64,000 nt of DNA from Halalkalibacter suaedae (GTDB lineage Bacteria > Bacillota > Bacilli > Bacillales > Bacillaceae_D), in NCBI RefSeq assembly GCF_017939705.1, contig NZ_JAGKSQ010000008.1:1-64000 (forward strand), given 5' to 3'. The notes below the pieces were generated by a model, which did no database searches, was not told the origin of the DNA, and saw only the letters and a list, made by a program, of their open reading frames with translations. This document shows positions 6,593 through 30,979 of this stretch, one piece after another. Position numbers and translations under genes: made by a program. The number at the start of each line of letters is the position of its first letter. Positions within the stretch are counted from its first letter, which is position 1.

Positions 6593-7842
6593 TGTTTAGT
6601 CAATTCAGACATAAAGAAACACTTGAACAAATGACAAAAGAAATAGAACAGCAAATACGCACGCACCATGAAAAGATTGAGCAAGTAGCCCTTACCAATC
6701 AAGCTAAAGTGATGGATTCATTCAGAAAGCATCAAGTTTCAGATTTTCATTTCACTCCATCGACAGGGTACGGTTATGATGATGCAGGTCGTGATACACT
6801 TGAGCAAATATATGCAGATGTCTTTGGCGGCGAGGCGGCACTTGTCCGCCCGCAAATTATTTCAGGAACACATGCGATTGCAACATCCCTTTTTGGGGTA
6901 TTAAGACCAGGAGACGAATTGTTATACATCACTGGAAAGCCCTACGACACACTTGAAGAGATCGTAGGAATTAGAGGAAACGGGAATGGTTCACTAAAAG
7001 AATTTAATATTGAGTATGATGCTATTCCATTACTTGAATCTGGCTGGATCGATGAAGCAAGAATTAAAGAAGCGATATCAGAAAAGACAAAGATGATTGG
7101 TATCCAACGCTCAAAGGGCTACAGTGATCGTTCTTCGTTTACGATTGAGCAAATCGAGAAGATGATTCAATTTGTCCGAGGAATAAAAAAAGATGTTATT
7201 GTGTTTGTCGATAACTGTTATGGGGAATTTGTTGAACTACAGGAACCTTGTGATGTTGGTGCCGATTTAATGGCGGGTTCTCTAATTAAGAACCCAGGTG
7301 GGGGCATTGTGAAAACAGGTGGCTATATTGTCGGTAAGGAAAAGCTTGTAGAACTAGCTTCATATCGATTAGCTGCACCTGGAATTGGTGCAGAAGGTGG
7401 AGCAAGTCTTTATAGTTTACTAGAGATGTATCAGGGTTTCTTTCTTGCCCCGCACGTTGTATCACAAGCTTTAAAAGGAGCGATCTTTACTGCAGCAATA
7501 TTAGAAAGGGTTGGCATGGACTCAGTGCCAAAATGGGATGAACCGAGAACCGATTTGATTCAATCAGTACGATTTACATCCGCTGAAAAGATGATAACGT
7601 TTTGTCAGGCGATACAGTCGGCATCACCAATTAATGCCCATGTTAAGCCACATCCTAGTGCAATGCCAGGATATGACGATCCGGTTATTATGGCTGCGGG
7701 TACGTTTATTCAAGGGGCAAGCATTGAACTTACTGCTGATGGCCCGATACGTGAGCCATATATCGCGTATGTCCAAGGTGGGCTCACCTATGAACACGTA
7801 AAAATTGCCGTATTGCAAGCACTTGATTCTATTCTCGAATAG
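6592..7842 (+). CDS. ynbB: PLP-dependent methionine gamma-lyase family protein (YnbB-like)
   Basis: A 416-residue fold-type I PLP enzyme of the group annotated as methionine gamma-lyase or aluminium-resistance protein. Visible marks are the phosphate-binding area ISGTHAIATSLFG (about residues 85-97), an Asp in VFVDNCYGEF (about 204-213) that should contact the pyridine nitrogen, and the Lys in SLIKNPGGGIVKTGGYI (about 233) that should bind PLP. The true substrate is not established. It overlaps hflX by one base and lies upstream of glnA. In B. subtilis glnR sits directly after this gene; here it does not. Confidence 0.88.
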   Translation: MFSQFRHKETLEQMTKEIEQQIRTHHEKIEQVALTNQAKVMDSFRKHQVSDFHFTPSTGYGYDDAGRDTLEQIYADVFGGEAALVRPQIISGTHAIATSLFGVLRPGDELLYITGKPYDTLEEIVGIRGNGNGSLKEFNIEYDAIPLLESGWIDEARIKEAISEKTKMIGIQRSKGYSDRSSFTIEQIEKMIQFVRGIKKDVIVFVDNCYGEFVELQEPCDVGADLMAGSLIKNPGGGIVKTGGYIVGKEKLVELASYRLAAPGIGAEGGASLYSLLEMYQGFFLAPHVVSQALKGAIFTAAILERVGMDSVPKWDEPRTDLIQSVRFTSAEKMITFCQAIQSASPINAHVKPHPSAMPGYDDPVIMAAGTFIQGASIELTADGPIREPYIAYVQGGLTYEHVKIAVLQALDSILE

Positions 7843-7853
7843 ACCGAATTCAT

Positions 7854-7870
7854 TGACACTATTGATTACA
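7854..7870. promoter_or_regulatory. GlnR/TnrA-like operator upstream of glnA
   Basis: TGACACTATTGATTACA fits the Bacillus GlnR/TnrA consensus TGTNA-N7-TNACA at 7 of 8 fixed positions (A for T at position 3). It lies about 120 bases before the glnA start. It suggests nitrogen control is kept although glnR is not adjacent. Confidence 0.5.
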
Positions 7871-7993
7871 TCTAGTAACATGATAATTGGTGAAGTATAA
7901 GAAGCAATAGTTTTTTAGTACATAATTCATAAGTTAAACAAGCTTTGACTTGTTTTTCTAATAAAATGAGATTTGAAAGGGGACTACATAAGG

Positions 7994-9343
7994 ATGGCAA
8001 AGTACACAAAGGAAGATATTTTGCGTATCGCAAAGGAAGATAACGTTCGCTTTATTCGTCTTCAGTTCACAGATTTGCTTGGAACGATTAAGAATGTTGA
8101 AATTCCAGTAGACCAACTAACAAAAGCACTTGATAACAAAATGATGTTTGACGGTTCATCGATTGAAGGGTTTGTACGAATTGAAGAATCAGATATGTAC
8201 CTATATCCTGATTTAGATACATGGGTGATCTTCACATGGACACCTGAAAAGGGAAGAGTTGCACGTTTGATTTGTGACGTATACCAACCAGGTAAGCCAG
8301 GAGAAGAGCCAACTCCATTTGCTGGTGATCCACGCGGTGCCCTTAAAAGAGTTCTTAAGCAAGCAGAAAAACTTGGTTTTACAGCATTTAACATTGGACC
8401 TGAGCCAGAATTTTTCTTGTTCAAGAACGATGAGAATGGTGAACCAACATTAGAATTAAATGATAAAGGTGGATACTTCGACCTTGCACCAACTGATTTA
8501 GGTGAGAACTGCCGCCGTGATATCGTGCTTGAGCTTGAAGACATGGGCTTTGATATCGAAGCATCCCACCATGAGGTTGCTCCAGGTCAACACGAAATTG
8601 ATTTCAAATATGCAGATGCTATTACAGCTTGTGATAACATTCAAACGTTCAAGCTAGTTGTTAAAACAATTGCTCGTAAGCATGGTTTACATGCGACATT
8701 TATGCCAAAGCCGTTATTTGGTGTAAACGGATCAGGTATGCACTGCAACATGTCATTATTCACAAAAGAAGGAAATGCTTTTTTTGATGAATCAACAGAA
8801 TCACAACTTAGTGAAACAGCAATGCAATTCCTAGCAGGTATCTTGGACCATGCTGAAGGATTCACTGCAATTACGAACCCAATTGTAAATTCATATAAGC
8901 GTCTAGTTCCAGGCTACGAGGCACCTGTCTATGTTGCATGGTCTATGCGTAACCGTAGTCCGCTTATCCGTATCCCGTCATCACGTGGAGTAAGTACACG
9001 TGTTGAAGTACGTAGCCCAGACCCAGCTGCAAATCCATACCTAGCGATGGCTGCAATGTTAGCTGCAGGTCTTGATGGAATTAAAAAGAAGAAGACGCCA
9101 CCGACTGCGACAGATCGTAATATCTACGTGATGAGCAAAGAAGAGCGTATCGAAGAAGGAATTGCTGATCTACCTGCAACATTAAAAGAAGCAATAGATA
9201 AGCTAATTTCTGACGATGTTCTTGTTCGTGCACTTGGTGAGCACATTGTTGAGAACTTTGTTGAAGCAAAAGAAATCGAATGGGATATGTTCCGTACGCA
9301 AGTTCACCCGTGGGAACGCGATCAATACCTAGAAACATACTAA
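7994..9343 (+). CDS. glnA: glutamine synthetase, type I-alpha
   Basis: A 449-residue GSI-alpha glutamine synthetase, which makes glutamine from glutamate, ammonia and ATP. Signatures are FDGSSIEGF with the regulatory Arg that follows (VRIEESD, about residues 56-62), the Glu ligands in GPEPEFFLF, the ATP-binding [18 protein letters not shown], and the terminal [21 protein letters not shown] used for GlnR/TnrA contact in Bacillus. Start ATG 7994 (MAKYTKEDI) matches the family; an in-frame TTG at 7973 is less likely. The last 18 codons and the terminator are duplicated at 11844, marking the insertion site of an integrative element. Confidence 0.97.
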
Positions 9344-9388
9344 GAAGTAAGACCCTTGACACAATTGGTGTTGAGGGTTTTTTCTTTT
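9287..9388 (+). repeat. left copy of the glnA-end direct repeat (attL-like)
   Basis: This 102-bp segment covers the last 18 codons of glnA and its terminator. It recurs ungapped at 11844-11945 with about 14 differences. All six differences inside the coding part are synonymous. This is the pattern left by site-specific integration into a gene 3' end. Confidence 0.88.
9351..9383 (+). terminator. glnA terminator
   Basis: ACCCTTGACAC pairs with GTGTTGAGGGT and is followed by a T run. A near-identical hairpin occurs at 11908-11942. Confidence 0.9.
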
Positions 9389-9412
9389 GGGGGCACACTT
9401 TAATCAAGGTAA

Positions 9413-9649
9413 TTAATTGGAGGATTGCTCCCGATTTGCCCCCTGTTTAAAAATTTCTTCAGTATGTTTTTCGAAGTGACTAATGGCATCCGATTCGATC
9501 TTCTTACTAACATGAGCATACACATCAGATGTAATTTGCATTGAGCTATGCCCCAATGCCTCCTGAATGTATTTCATTTCAGCTTTCGACTCCAACATTA
9601 GAACAGCATGTGTGTGTCTTAGTGAGTGTATTGGGAGGGGAGGTAGCAC
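9413..9649 (-). pseudogene. tyrosine recombinase (phage integrase), C-terminal remnant
   Basis: This frame encodes 78 residues equal to the end of a phage-type tyrosine recombinase: the box II HSLRHTHA (His-x-x-Arg), LGHSSMQIT with the conserved His, and the nucleophile Tyr in DVYAHVSK. The N-terminal arm/core-binding domains and the box I Arg are missing. It points toward the glnA end, as integrases usually do next to their attachment site. Upstream, its DNA continues in a different frame as the tail of the gene at 9579-9947, so a deletion near 9645 fused two genes out of frame. Confidence 0.85.
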
Positions 9650-9947
9650 CTACCATTTCTTTCATAGCTTCAATTTTCCCAATAGCTACAACTACTTCGT
9701 CACCAGCAGAATCATCGTCAGGTGTCAATCTAACAATTCTTTTTTTGTCACCATCATAATCAATAACTATATCATGAAAAAGGTCTCTTAATCGATGGAG
9801 TTCTTTTAATTCGGTTATACGCTTTAGTCTCTCCATCTGTTCAAGGAGAGGTGTGTAGTTAGACAAACTTATCTCTGTCATTCTCACATCTATACCATCT
9901 ACTCTAAGACTGTGAGTCCCAATTATTGGTTCAGTGAAACTCATCAT
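9579..9947 (-). CDS. phage-type small protein with a scrambled C terminus
   Basis: A 122-residue frame with a good start: AGAAGG lies just before two adjacent ATG codons at 9947 and 9944. The first 100 residues look like a real protein (a helical EQMERLKRITELKELHRLRDLF stretch followed by an acidic strand region). The last ~22 residues are the DNA of the integrase remnant read in another frame and are probably not native. I do not recognise the family. The gene is likely truncated by the same deletion that removed most of the integrase. Confidence 0.5.
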   Translation of the reverse strand: MMSFTEPIIGTHSLRVDGIDVRMTEISLSNYTPLLEQMERLKRITELKELHRLRDLFHDIVIDYDGDKKRIVRLTPDDDSAGDEVVVAIGKIEAMKEMVGATSPPNTLTKTHTCCSNVGVES

Positions 9948-9949
9948 TG

Positions 9950-10158
9950 AACCTTCTCAATCTAGTTTACTTGAAGAAAAACCTAAGGATAATCATGAAG
10001 GCATTGAATACACTGTTGACGTTACTAGCGGAGTAGAAGTGAAGAAGAAAGAAGAAACGGCAGATCCTGAAACAGAGGACATGCTAGCAGCTGCTCGTGA
10101 AACGGATGAAGAAATGGATGACGAATCCATGTGGGATGATGACGATCTACCAAACTAG
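9950..10158 (+). pseudogene. C-terminal fragment of a phage protein with an SSB-like acidic tail
   Basis: An open frame ending in EMDDESMWDDDDLPN. It could start at GTG 9934 but has no ribosome binding site, and its beginning overlaps the start signals of the divergent gene, so it is probably the tail of a longer phage gene. The very acidic end with DDDDLP resembles the C-terminal tail of single-stranded DNA-binding proteins (DDDLPF), but the OB fold is absent and the last Phe is Asn. The assignment to an SSB or recombination protein is only a suggestion. Confidence 0.4.
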
Positions 10159-10217
10159 TATAACGAGCCCTGGCATAAGTCCGGGCTTTCCTTTTAATCA
10201 ATTGCGAGGTGTTGTCA

Positions 10218-10661
10218 GTGAGCTTTGAATTACCTGAATTGGACAGAAGACAGACTCAAGCTGCAGTAGAGAAGGCACTTTCTAAGTATCGAATTTCCAA
10301 GTATGTTGCTTTTGACGATAGAGAAGCCACGACAACAGCTTCTTACCAGGAAAGGCTTCACGGTCCAACCAACACAACAAGTGATCAAACAGCGCAGGTA
10401 GCCATAGAGAATGTGGATCAAAGAAGAAAACAAAAGGAATATTGTGAACGTATTGAACGAGCGGTTAAGCGACTACCTCCGATGGAGCGGTTCTTAATTG
10501 AACAAAGATACCTCGCAGATGATGCCGAATATATCACTGATTACAACGTGTATTCATTTAAGTTCCAGCCTCCTATAAGCGAAGGGAAATACCGGATTAT
10601 TCGTTGGAAAGCTTTTTACAAGCTTTCCCTTAATTTGAATTTAGCTATTAACAAAGAGTAG
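10218..10661 (+). CDS. ArpU-family phage transcriptional regulator
   Basis: A 147-residue protein resembling the ArpU/late-gene regulators that sit before the packaging genes of many Gram-positive prophages. It shows the N-terminal FELPELDRRQTQAAVEKAL-YRISKYV block, a Lys/Arg-rich middle, and a sigma-like ERIERAVKRLPPMERFLIEQRYL segment. The C-terminal part, where a helix-turn-helix is expected, reads less typically, so the end may be altered. Start GTG 10218 was chosen because GCGAGGTG lies 6 bases upstream. No packaging genes follow, which fits a decayed prophage. Confidence 0.68.
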   Translation: MSFELPELDRRQTQAAVEKALSKYRISKYVAFDDREATTTASYQERLHGPTNTTSDQTAQVAIENVDQRRKQKEYCERIERAVKRLPPMERFLIEQRYLADDAEYITDYNVYSFKFQPPISEGKYRIIRWKAFYKLSLNLNLAINKE

Positions 10662-10664
10662 GTG

Positions 10665-10694
10665 TAGACAGACACTATTAAAATGTAATATAAT
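10665..10694 (+). promoter_or_regulatory. promoter of the secreted-protein gene
   Basis: TAGACA (10665-10670) and TATAAT (10689-10694) are separated by 18 bases, a good sigma-A-type promoter just after the ArpU gene. Confidence 0.6.
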
Positions 10695-10704
10695 TTAAAA
10701 TATG

Positions 10705-10727
10705 GTAAATTAATCCAATTAATTTAC
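10705..10727. promoter_or_regulatory. palindrome between promoter and start codon
   Basis: GTAAATTAAT (10705-10714) and ATTAATTTAC (10718-10727) form a perfect inverted repeat with a 3-base centre. It sits just downstream of the -10 box and is a candidate repressor site. Confidence 0.5.
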
Positions 10728-10760
10728 TATAATTGAAAAAAAGGAGTGTTCTAAATAATT

Positions 10761-11282
10761 ATGGGTAAGAAAAAGGTCTTTAGCTTTTTAGGTTTTGTTG
10801 TGTTGTTTTTGCTAGTATTTCCATTTTCTCTAACAAGTGAGCCGAGTGAAGTAAGTGCTGGCCCAATTAGTTGTAAGGGCCTAGGTGATACCGAGATAAT
10901 GGATGTAAATGAAACTAGTTTAGTAAGTGATGATTTTGTTACAATACAATGCGGTGGCGTGAATCTATGGATCAGTATTAGATCAGCTGCCAATTACGGT
11001 GGGGGAAATAACCAATACCACAATTATAACACAACAGGTGGTTATCAACGAGCTAAATCAAACTTCGATTCATTACCAGGGACCGTAACCAAAACTAGTC
11101 CAATGACAAAAAGAACACCTGATGGTCATAATGTAACTTTATACCAGGCTACAGGTACCACTGGCAGACCATGGACTGTACAGTATAGTCCACGTCCACG
11201 AACAACTAATCAAATTGATAAAATCAGATATTATGACTCAAACGCAACCTTTCCGATGTATCTACCAAGTGAGGAATATTAA
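10761..11282 (+). CDS. small secreted protein, candidate toxin
   Basis: A 173-residue exported protein. It has a Lys-rich N terminus, a hydrophobic segment (about residues 8-25) and a likely signal peptidase site after VSA (about residue 34). The mature part has two Cys (ISCKG, TIQCGG), a Gly/Asn-rich middle (YGGGNNQYHNYN) and a C-terminal part, ending in a KIRYY motif, that recalls the short nuclease-like ends of bacterial polymorphic toxins. That resemblance is from memory and is weak. A gene for a cytosolic protein follows after 2 bases, the usual toxin/immunity layout. The function is not proven. Confidence 0.5.
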   Translation: MGKKKVFSFLGFVVLFLLVFPFSLTSEPSEVSAGPISCKGLGDTEIMDVNETSLVSDDFVTIQCGGVNLWISIRSAANYGGGNNQYHNYNTTGGYQRAKSNFDSLPGTVTKTSPMTKRTPDGHNVTLYQATGTTGRPWTVQYSPRPRTTNQIDKIRYYDSNATFPMYLPSEEY

Positions 11283-11284
11283 AT

Positions 11285-11749
11285 ATGAGAGAACCAAAAT
11301 TCTCTGTCTGGCAACCGGATGAGAATATTCTAAAGGGAGATGGAATTTATCATCACCAAATTATTGATAATGAAAATGGTTTAATCATCTCATTAACTGA
11401 CCAATTTGGTTCAAAAGTTAATATTACTTATAATGAACTATCTAAACATATAGGGAATTATGTTTGGTCTTATCGCTTTACCAATGAAATTTGTATGCAG
11501 TTTATGGTAGACGTTTTAGATGAAGCGGAAAAAAGAGTTATACAGAACGGAATGAAATTTGAAAAGGATGCTTTCTGGTTTTATAAATCACAGGATTCAG
11601 AATATATTAAGGGTTTTAGTAAAGAAATAGAAAGTTCTATTAACTCAGTTCCAGAGATGGAAGTCCATATATTCCGTATCGTTGGTGGTTTTATAGAAGT
11701 CATTAGTGACTATAACCCAGAAATTGTAATCGTGACCTCATTAAAGTAA
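11285..11749 (+). CDS. cytoplasmic partner protein, candidate immunity
   Basis: A 154-residue soluble protein without signal peptide or membrane segment and rich in acidic residues. I do not recognise a family. Its GTGAGG ribosome binding site lies inside the end of the secreted-protein gene and its ATG is 2 bases after that gene's stop, so the pair is co-transcribed and probably coupled. The size, acidity and position fit an immunity protein for the preceding secreted protein, but this is inferred from layout only. Confidence 0.5.
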   Translation: MREPKFSVWQPDENILKGDGIYHHQIIDNENGLIISLTDQFGSKVNITYNELSKHIGNYVWSYRFTNEICMQFMVDVLDEAEKRVIQNGMKFEKDAFWFYKSQDSEYIKGFSKEIESSINSVPEMEVHIFRIVGGFIEVISDYNPEIVIVTSLK

Positions 11750-11843
11750 ATGGAATCCATAGTGAGTTTAGCATTCTTTATAGTTTATTGAGATCAATGT
11801 AATATTTACGAGAATCTCACATTAAAGTATTATAGGAAGAAAC

Positions 11844-11945
11844 ATGTTCCGTACACAAGTTCATCCGTGGGAACGTGACCAATACTTAGAAACATATTAA
11901 GAAGAGGGGCCCTTGACACTGCTGGTGTTGAGGGTTTTTTCTTTG
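11844..11945 (+). repeat. right copy of the glnA-end direct repeat (attR-like)
   Basis: This segment encodes the same last 18 residues as glnA ([18 protein letters not shown]) plus a terminator, with no upstream glnA sequence. It begins abruptly after unrelated DNA. Six synonymous codon changes separate it from the copy in the intact gene, so the two copies have different histories rather than being a recent duplication. Confidence 0.88.
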
Positions 11946-29708: not shown

Positions 29709-30979
29709 ACAGCGACATTTGCTGTCGTTGCTTTTTCTGGTTTCTTGGCAATCGAGGCACAGATGATTCCGATTACCGGAAACAGTAATGTCATTAGTAA
29801 CACAGGCGTGTAACTATGAAACAAGTCATAACCCACCCCAAATGGTAACGGCCCAAATGCAGAAGCAATCACTCCAATTGTTGCAGCGACGCCTTTAATA
29901 CTTCCAATGTATTTGCGGCCGAAATAATTGGGCCAAATGATAGCAAAGGTAATTCGCTCAAGTCCTCCTGCCGTTCCCCAGAGGATCCCAAAAATAATGG
30001 CAAAAGTAAAATTCTTTGTTACTAGCAGCATAAGCAATAACATAATCTCAATTACGAAAATCAGTAAGACTAATAGATTTGTTTTCACTTTTTCCAAAAT
30101 GAAGCCTGACGCAAAAGAAATAGGGAAACCAACGATCGCCATTAAACTTAAAACGGTTGCAGCAATTTGTGGACTTAAACCATTTTCTCCGAGAATGGAG
30201 AGGAGGTGAAAGGTAATACCTGTGTTTACTAAGGCTGGGATACCAACACAAATTAATATGGCCCAGAAAGCTACAGTTTTCCTTGCTTCCTTCAATGTCC
30301 AATTTTCCTCGGATACAGGAATTACTGTTCCAATTGTCTCACTTGTTTGATCTTGTTTCTCGACTTTGCCATCAGGGACTAAGCCGATATCCTCTGGCTT
30401 GTTCCTAACACCTAGTAAAACAACGGGGACAAATAAGAATAATAGAAGACAGCCCCAGACTTGCCATGATGTTTGCCAGTCCCATCTGCTAATCATCCAT
30501 GCATTTGCTACAGGGAAAAAAGCTGCACTTGCAAAGCTACCTATTGCCATAAAACTTAAGGCGCGTCCTCGCTTAACGATAAACCACTGTGGAACAAGTG
30601 TCCCTGGAATAAGCGACATGCTTCCTTGACCGAATAATCGTATCATAAAGAATCCAATCGCCATCATCCAAATGTTTGAAACGAAACTGTTAAAGAAGCA
30701 AGCTAAACCAAGAACGGTCCCGACAATCACCATCATTTTTCGTTGACCTAATTGATCAATGAGGCGACCGACGAAAAACATTAAAATACCAGCACAAAAG
30801 GTCGCAATTGAGTAGATCCCCGAAACTTCTGAACGTGACCAGCCAAAATCAGCAATATATTGGTCAATATAGACGGAATTTGAATACGTTTGCCCGGGCC
30901 CTGAGAAAAAGACTCCAAACCCTGCAATGAAGACGATCACCCATCCGTAATAAAAGGATTGTGACATTCGTTTAATCAT
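29705..30979 (-). CDS. MFS transporter, OFA (oxalate/formate antiporter) type
   Basis: A 424-residue 12-helix MFS protein. It opens with YYGWVIVFIAGFGVFFSGPGQT and the SRSEVSGIYSIATF stretch typical of OFA-type monocarboxylate carriers, with the MFS loop GRLIDQLGQRK (about residues 68-78). The substrate is probably a small organic acid; this is inferred from the subfamily. ATG 30979 is chosen because GGGGTG lies 7 bases upstream; an in-frame ATG at 31012 has none. Confidence 0.85.
   Translation of the reverse strand: MIKRMSQSFYYGWVIVFIAGFGVFFSGPGQTYSNSVYIDQYIADFGWSRSEVSGIYSIATFCAGILMFFVGRLIDQLGQRKMMVIVGTVLGLACFFNSFVSNIWMMAIGFFMIRLFGQGSMSLIPGTLVPQWFIVKRGRALSFMAIGSFASAAFFPVANAWMISRWDWQTSWQVWGCLLLFLFVPVVLLGVRNKPEDIGLVPDGKVEKQDQTSETIGTVIPVSEENWTLKEARKTVAFWAILICVGIPALVNTGITFHLLSILGENGLSPQIAATVLSLMAIVGFPISFASGFILEKVKTNLLVLLIFVIEIMLLLMLLVTKNFTFAIIFGILWGTAGGLERITFAIIWPNYFGRKYIGSIKGVAATIGVIASAFGPLPFGVGYDLFHSYTPVLLMTLLFPVIGIICASIAKKPEKATTANVAV

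What the first reader, a model, noticed from the sequence alone, without database searches (positions are those of the whole stretch)
9287..11945. Integrative element in the 3' end of glnA, with a donor-type glnA terminus
Seen: two ungapped ~102-bp copies of the glnA end flank 2.45 kb of phage-like DNA with an integrase remnant beside the left copy. Both copies encode the same 18 residues, but differ at six synonymous positions and several places in the terminator region. Inference: the element carried its own glnA 3' end from a different host and rebuilt the gene on insertion, a way of using an essential gene as an attachment site without damaging it. tRNA ends are the usual site; glnA is unusual.
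Basis: partly seen in the sequence, partly recalled or inferred. Interest (0 to 1): 0.75.

Follow-up and report, generated by a model that had tools for sequence, protein, structure and literature searches.

The report
Prophage remnant rebuilding the glnA end
A decayed phage sits at the tail end of this bacterium's glutamine synthetase gene and most likely supplied that gene's last codons; related elements use the same spot in many Bacillus-type bacteria, so an essential gene serves as a docking site without being broken.

Summary
The last 17 codons, stop and terminator of glnA (9287-9387) recur ungapped at 11844-11944 (101 nt, 87%), around 2456 bp that keep an integrase C-terminus and an ArpU phage regulator. 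Best reading: a decayed prophage whose attP carried its own glnA end, rebuilt the gene on insertion and displaced the native end.

Evidence is mostly comparative. 37 of 397 genomes sampled from the order have an intact glnA plus an orphan glnA end on the same contig and strand. Of the 80 best-matching integrases in named genomes, 75 end about 100-225 bp from a glnA end. Two phage records carry a glnA end beside int. In two genomes of another genus the orphan end is 91% identical to an element-free congener, and the int-side end is not, so the int-side end is the newcomer.

Corrections: glnA is not a rare site in this order. For this window, which end is foreign is only suggested. The mechanism is a known kind (e14 in icd), and one paper names the glutamine synthetase gene as a staphylococcal phage site. 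My searches found no description of a Bacillales-wide glnA integrase family. Four pairs suggest that lysogeny can change GlnA's last residues.

The parts
7994..9343 (+). glnA, glutamine synthetase, intact; its last codons lie in the first repeat
   Evidence: ORF list; 449 residues aligned end to end with solved glutamine synthetases such as 4s0r
9287..9387 (+). copy A of the glnA end, joined in frame to glnA (attL-like); by analogy with kin, the incoming end
   Evidence: direction shown for other elements only
9311..9318 (+). codons 8 to 10 of the repeat, the most likely zone of strand exchange (inferred)
   Evidence: conserved stretch across 41 pairs and host-like versus foreign sides in G083 read by eye; not mapped
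9352..9383 (+). terminator of copy A
   Evidence: hairpin plus T run
9389..9443 (.). arm-like words: one forward (9389-9394) and two inverted (9426-9432, 9437-9443)
   Evidence: positions; the same layout with other words in intact elements seen by eye
9413..9649 (-). C-terminal remnant of a tyrosine integrase, convergent with glnA
   Evidence: PF00589 E 3.4e-10; phrog_1 E 3.6e-16; 61% identical to the glnA-adjacent integrase of G037 over the aligned part
9579..9947 (-). ORF holding a fragment of phage family phrog_2695, overlapping the integrase remnant in another frame
   Evidence: E 9.2e-9
9934..10158 (+). ORF matching the C-terminal part of phage family phrog_5494
   Evidence: E 3.3e-5
10209..10661 (+). 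ArpU-type phage late regulator
   Evidence: TIGR01637 E 4.2e-15, above its cut-off; phrog_248 E 4.3e-28; up to 65% identity to phage proteins
10761..11282 (+). ORF without recognised relatives; N-terminus looks like a signal sequence (by eye)
   Evidence: no family match, no phage match
11285..11749 (+). ORF without recognised relatives
   Evidence: no family match, no phage match
11831..11843 (+). element-side flank of copy B, shared with elements in G023, G081 and G104
   Evidence: listing of the 60 nt upstream of orphan copies
11844..11944 (+). copy B of the glnA end, orphan (attR-like), with its own terminator at 11910-11940

Best explanation
This is a decayed temperate phage (or phage-derived element) that entered the 3' end of glnA by site-specific recombination with a tyrosine integrase. 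Its attP carried a substitute for the last codons of glnA, the stop codon and a terminator, followed by arm-type sites and int. Strand exchange within the repeat, probably around codons 8-10, joined the host's 5' part of glnA to the element's 3' part, so the enzyme stayed readable, and pushed the host's own end to the far side as an orphan copy. Later deletions left 2.45 kb. Shown here: the repeats, intact glnA, integrase and phage remnants, the same layout in many genomes, phage records with a glnA end beside int, and the direction (int-side end incoming, orphan end native) in two other genomes. Inferred: the exact crossover, the direction in this window, the host of origin, and loss of activity.
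For: Repeat and synonymous differences. Integrase C-terminus next to copy A and ArpU. 37 of 397 order genomes with an in-frame and an orphan end; in 18 of the 38 genomes with pairs the ends are 36-57 kb apart, prophage size (positions). 75 of 80 best integrase relatives end beside a glnA end. Glna ends beside int in the phage records SPbetaL5 and vB_SpsX-DS11. Direction: orphan ends of G324 and G344 are 91% identical to element-free congeners, int-side ends of G135, G324 and G344 are 98-100% identical to each other. In codons not fixed by the search motif, 58 synonymous and 10 non-synonymous differences over 41 pairs, expected synonymous share 0.20. The window remnant falls in a starred six-row subclade with four glnA-adjacent integrases.
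Against: Only 2.45 kb is left and the integrase is truncated, so nothing about activity can be tested. In this window the sequence after the stop does not tell which end is native, and codon 6 points against the simple left-right split. One of the six rows of the window's integrase subclade (L161) has no glnA end beside it. In 12 of 38 genomes with a pair no integrase was recognised near the in-frame end. The glnA label needs six changes on the integrase tree, so it is clustered but not one clean clade.
Confidence: 0.92

Rival explanations
1. The element came from the same species, the two ends were identical at insertion, and all differences arose in place afterwards.
For: The element is decayed and may be old; in several pairs the two ends are identical or nearly so (for example G204, G395, G080, G104). 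The end after the stop does not discriminate in the window.
Against: An orphan copy free of selection should gain amino-acid changes; here 6 of 6 codon differences are synonymous (about 8e-5 if changes were random). G352 and G083, with open integrases, also have diverged ends.
Confidence: 0.12
2. The repeat is a plain tandem duplication of the glnA end, with unrelated DNA between the copies and no site-specific recombination.
For: One pair elsewhere lies only 259 bp apart with no integrase recognised (G357).
Against: Integrase and ArpU remnants between the copies; 26 of 38 genomes with pairs have integrase sequence 122-197 bp from the start of the in-frame repeat; integrase kin found without regard to glnA adjacency lie beside glnA in 75 of 80 cases.
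Confidence: 0.02
3. The element is not a phage but a small integrative island using the same kind of integrase.
For: Several pairs are only 2-10 kb apart; the 7-kb element of G037 has a full integrase, an ORF that looks like a transposase and no structural phage gene that I recognised in its ORF list (by eye). The window has no structural genes.
Against: ArpU in the window matches regulators of complete phages, and 18 of 38 genomes with pairs have prophage-sized intervals.
Confidence: 0.2

Closest known systems
Prophage e14 in icd of Escherichia coli K-12
   Same: A prophage replaces the 3' end of a core metabolic gene with its own version and leaves a displaced copy on the far side; PMC11148124 (passages read) gives 165 bp, 12 nucleotide changes, two conservative residue changes and an intact frame.
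   Different: Other gene, other host phylum, longer replacement (54 residues against about 17, stop and terminator).
Phage phi909 at the glutamine synthetase gene of Staphylococcus epidermidis
   Same: Same target gene, as stated in PMC6368776 (section 13 read); that paper also places an incomplete S. aureus phage in this context.
   Different: The source paper is not held, so whether the phage carries a replacement end was not seen; host order sublineage differs.
Extended att identity blocks of tyrosine-integrase islands (fis, icd; PMC10111431, passages read)
   Same: States the principle: attP carries a replacement sequence so that the target gene stays functional, and the block can run into the terminator.
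   Different: Proteobacterial islands; glnA does not occur in its main text.
Bacillus phage SPbetaL5 (OQ921345.1)
   Same: Integrase 43% identical to that of G037 and a glnA end 170 bp (repeat start to int stop) away.
   Different: A 127-kb complete phage; its integration site was not seen in print and PMC8270828 (passages read) lists other sites for SPbeta-like phages.
Tn7 at glmS
   Same: Spares an essential gene by choosing its 3' end.
   Different: Inserts downstream by transposition (PMC4046053 passage) and brings no replacement coding end.

Membership tests
Tyrosine-integrase elements in the 3' end of glnA | direct repeat of the glnA end flanking the element, one copy in frame with glnA | tested here: met
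Tyrosine-integrase elements in the 3' end of glnA | integrase gene convergent with glnA beside the in-frame copy | tested here: met
   C-terminal remnant ending 123 bp from the repeat start
Tyrosine-integrase elements in the 3' end of glnA | integrase related to other glnA-adjacent integrases | tested here: met
   starred six-row subclade, four of them glnA-adjacent, one (L161) not; window row fills 18% of columns
Tyrosine-integrase elements in the 3' end of glnA | arm-type repeats between terminator and int | tested here: inconclusive
   words present and similar layout elsewhere by eye; no statistical test
Tyrosine-integrase elements in the 3' end of glnA | integration and excision at the repeat | not testable with these tools
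   needs experiment; integrase here is truncated
Prophages carrying a replacement 3' gene end (e14/icd type) | phage DNA outside the chromosome carries the replacement end | tested here: met
   for kin only: SPbetaL5 and DS11 records; not for the window element
Prophages carrying a replacement 3' gene end (e14/icd type) | orphan end is the native one, joined end the incoming one | tested here: inconclusive
   met in G324 and G344; undecided in the window
Tn7-like transposons at glmS | transposition genes; insertion downstream of the target without a replacement coding end | tested here: not met
   tyrosine-integrase remnant, duplicated coding end
Integrative and conjugative elements | relaxase and conjugation genes | tested here: inconclusive
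   none found among the six tested ORFs of the remnant, but most of the element is lost

The most novel reading that the evidence does not exclude
A family of integrases largely dedicated to glnA has made the last residues and terminator of glutamine synthetase an exchangeable, phage-borne module across Bacillales. In some lysogens the incoming tail changes the enzyme (joined against orphan end: G083 SQY/SMY, G352 RMY/TMY, G371 RMY/SMY, G370 TTF/TQF), and such swaps may tune the enzyme's assembly or its dealings with nitrogen regulators.
Probability: 0.12. Interest if true: 0.8.

Novelty: new member of a known kind. Interest (0 to 1): 0.5.

Why it matters
It shows that glnA, the central nitrogen-assimilation gene, is a recurrent docking site in Bacillales: 37 of 397 sampled genomes, a lower bound because only exact matches to one motif were counted. 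In such genomes the end of an essential enzyme and its terminator are likely phage-supplied, which gives a defined set of host proteins with phage-written tails to test. An orphan glnA end is also a simple signature for mapping element boundaries.

Tried and rejected
tRNA gene as target: no tRNA in the window. Cargo ORFs 10761-11282 and 11285-11749: no family or phage relatives. Listeria and Enterococcus phage records hit by the 21-residue GlnA tail: records marked unverified, aligned over all 21 residues including the part that host glnA would encode, so possible host DNA; fetched but not analysed. PhiSepi-HH1: a GlnA-like tail at 30853 but int at the record start, so not counted as an int-side attP. 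G046: two in-frame glnA-type ends 166 kb apart, taken as paralogs and dropped; G063: only orphan copies on the contig examined, dropped. L086: chance match to the motif. G028, G034, G038 and G039: second matches far apart, and the G028 copy is a different glnA type. Deciding native against incoming end in the window by the sequence after the stop: no discrimination. Exact crossover: bracketed only. The G083/G121 pair stays unclear: int-side ends 0.96 alike, orphan ends 0.69, but two element-free congeners (G273, G314) are closer to the int-side end than to G083's orphan end. In the G368 group int-side and orphan ends do not separate. G003, which I first counted as an empty site, has an integrase fragment 212 bp from the repeat start; leaving it out lowers the counts by one for the codons ACG, CAT, CGT, GAC and TAT, and changes no majority.
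Full report
1. Observation. The window carries glnA at 7994-9343. The 101 nt at 9287-9387, holding the last 17 codons, stop and terminator, recur at 11844-11944 with 87% identity and no gap. A search of the whole genome with this end finds these two places only. Six codons differ, all synonymously. Both terminator regions fold into hairpins. Between the copies lie 2456 bp: a tyrosine-integrase C-terminus convergent with glnA, fragments of two phage families of unknown function, an ArpU regulator and two ORFs without relatives in the searches made.

2. Is the site used by others? Whole genomes were searched for the motif FRxxVHPWE, exact matches only, so counts are lower bounds. Genus: 12 of 13 genomes match and only the window's own has two ends; one congener, G003, has an integrase fragment beside its single glnA end. 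Family: 39 of 41 match; close same-strand pairs in G000, G023 (42 kb), G037 (7 kb) and G040 (5.4 kb). Order: 354 of 397 match. The match list was cut, so genomes with two or more same-strand matches that were not listed were searched again, and both copies were fetched (plus loci). Genomes with one match on each strand were not followed up. Result: 37 of 397 order genomes have one end in frame with glnA and at least one orphan end on the same contig and strand, 0.26 to 126 kb away (G040 is outside the order sample; G046 and G063 were set aside). Together 38 genomes give 41 pairs. In 18 of the 38 the ends lie 36-57 kb apart (positions). In 26 of 38 an integrase or fragment ends 122-197 bp from the start of the in-frame repeat, 19 of them with an open stretch of 383 codons or more; in 12 none was recognised.

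3. Reverse test, starting from the integrase. An alignment of 17 glnA-adjacent integrases and the window remnant was used to scan named bacterial genomes: 235 relatives, best 80 kept. 75 of 80 have a GlnA-type tail about 100-225 bp beyond the integrase stop. By the printed upstream residues, 66 continue into glnA, 6 stand next to an orphan copy and 3 are cut by the contig end. Of the other five, L196 shows a decayed tail at a contig end and L161, L178, L199 and L217 show none. Hosts include Bacillus, Halobacillus, Domibacillus, Brevibacillus and Paenibacillus, and the tails differ by host group (for example VHQWERDQY in many Paenibacillus). As the query was built from glnA-adjacent integrases, this measures how constant the site is among their kin, not among integrases at large. 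Ten of the 80 were not open over the matched range and were left out of the tree. In the tree of 84 rows the window remnant (18% of columns filled) falls in a starred subclade with four glnA-adjacent integrases and L161. The glnA label needs six changes (shuffled mean 10.5, none of 500 as low), so it is clustered but not one clean clade.

4. Phages carry the gene end. SPbetaL5, a complete phage record from soil, has [17 protein letters not shown] and stop, 170 bp from repeat start to int stop. DS11, a staphylococcal phage record marked unverified, has YRTQVSEWEVEQYMKQY and stop beside its integrase. In IMG/VR 38 stretches match the motif; 14 of 38 have an integrase-like ORF ending within 104-296 bp, and one (L086) is a chance match.

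5. Which end is the newcomer? In one genus with 14 genomes searched, G135, G324 and G344 share int-side ends whose 45 nt after the stop are 98-100% identical. The orphan end of G324 is 0.91 identical to the single end of G213 (int-side end 0.53 to it), and the orphan end of G344 is 0.91 identical to that of G304 (int-side ends 0.67-0.69); no integrase was recognised beside the ends of G213 and G304. So the orphan end is native and the int-side end incoming in these two genomes. G135's orphan end has no such match. Two other single-end genomes resemble the int-side end at 0.82-0.84: G383, with an integrase fragment, and G163, without one. The G083/G121, G204/G395 and G368 groups do not decide the matter.

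6. Selection on both ends. Over 41 pairs there are 84 synonymous and 10 non-synonymous codon differences. The motif fixes some codons; in the others the counts are 58 and 10 against an expected synonymous share of 0.20 (p 2.4e-30; related genomes are not independent, so p is too small). Nine of 41 pairs differ in protein. By inspection five look like decay of the orphan end (G145, G347, G121, G387, G198) and four like alternative tails (G371, G352, G083, G370). In G083 the orphan tail SMY also occurs in two congeners without a recognised integrase, L243 and L246, while the joined tail is SQY, which other congeners have too.

7. The window itself. At codons 10, 11 and 17 the orphan copy has the codon commonest in 11 congeners (6, 9 and 9 against 4, 2 and 2 for the joined copy). 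At codon 3 the joined copy has it (7 against 2). Codon 6 goes to the orphan copy (8 against 3) and codon 14 is uninformative (one of the 11 is G003). This fits an incoming right part in copy A, weakly; the stretch after the stop does not decide. Next to the orphan copy a short flank is shared with G023, G081 and G104. After the copy A terminator the window keeps one forward and two inverted arm-like words, a layout also seen by eye in intact elements.

8. Mechanism. Most likely the integrase recombined attP with glnA around codons 8-10; the host gained the phage's last codons and terminator and its own end moved to the far side, the gene staying readable. PMC10111431 states this principle and PMC11148124 and PMC6379469 describe it for e14 in icd (passages read). 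That the C-terminal region of glutamine synthetase takes part in ring contacts and regulator binding is recalled, not tested; solved Bacillus-type structures exist for comparison.

9. Literature. PMC6368776 (section 13 read) says the glutamine synthetase gene is an integration site of phi909 of S. epidermidis; the source paper is not held. PMC8270828 (passages read) lists other sites for SPbeta-like phages. Searches showed me no paper on a glnA integrase family in Bacillales or its replacement ends; this covers the open-licence library only, and most hits were judged from listings.

10. Verdict. Right in substance; the site is common rather than unusual. A new member of a known kind; the breadth of the family and the tail-changing cases carry most of the interest.

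Noticed in passing
window 7842-7994: No glnR between the upstream gene and glnA, although G023 has a GlnR-like ORF there. Two GlnR/TnrA-like genes lie elsewhere in the genome.
   Followed up: partly
L044 (G391), L131-L138 (G368, G219, G308): Two or three glnA ends in a row, some orphan ends with an integrase or fragment of their own: elements stacked in tandem at glnA.
   Followed up: partly
L055 and L159 (G258): A 126-kb interval with a full integrase at glnA, about the size of SPbetaL5 (127 kb), whose integrase groups near that of Terribacillus aidingensis L184 in the tree; possibly an SPbeta-like prophage at glnA.
   Followed up: no
L336-L339 (G204, G395): Within each genome both ends have identical coding sequence, yet the two genomes differ in the first codons while their flanks are 92-94% alike: looks like homogenisation between the two ends.
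   Followed up: no
L005 (G003, same genus as the window): Integrase fragment 212 bp from the start of the last 17 codons of glnA but no second motif-matching end: another decayed element of this kind.
   Followed up: partly
downstream of glnA in the elements listed: Each element has its own arm-like word (for example GTGGGTGA, GTGGTCAA, GGGGACA) in the same forward/inverted layout.
   Followed up: no
window 10761-11282: ORF beside the orphan end with a signal-like N-terminus and no relatives found; could be cargo of the element.
   Followed up: partly
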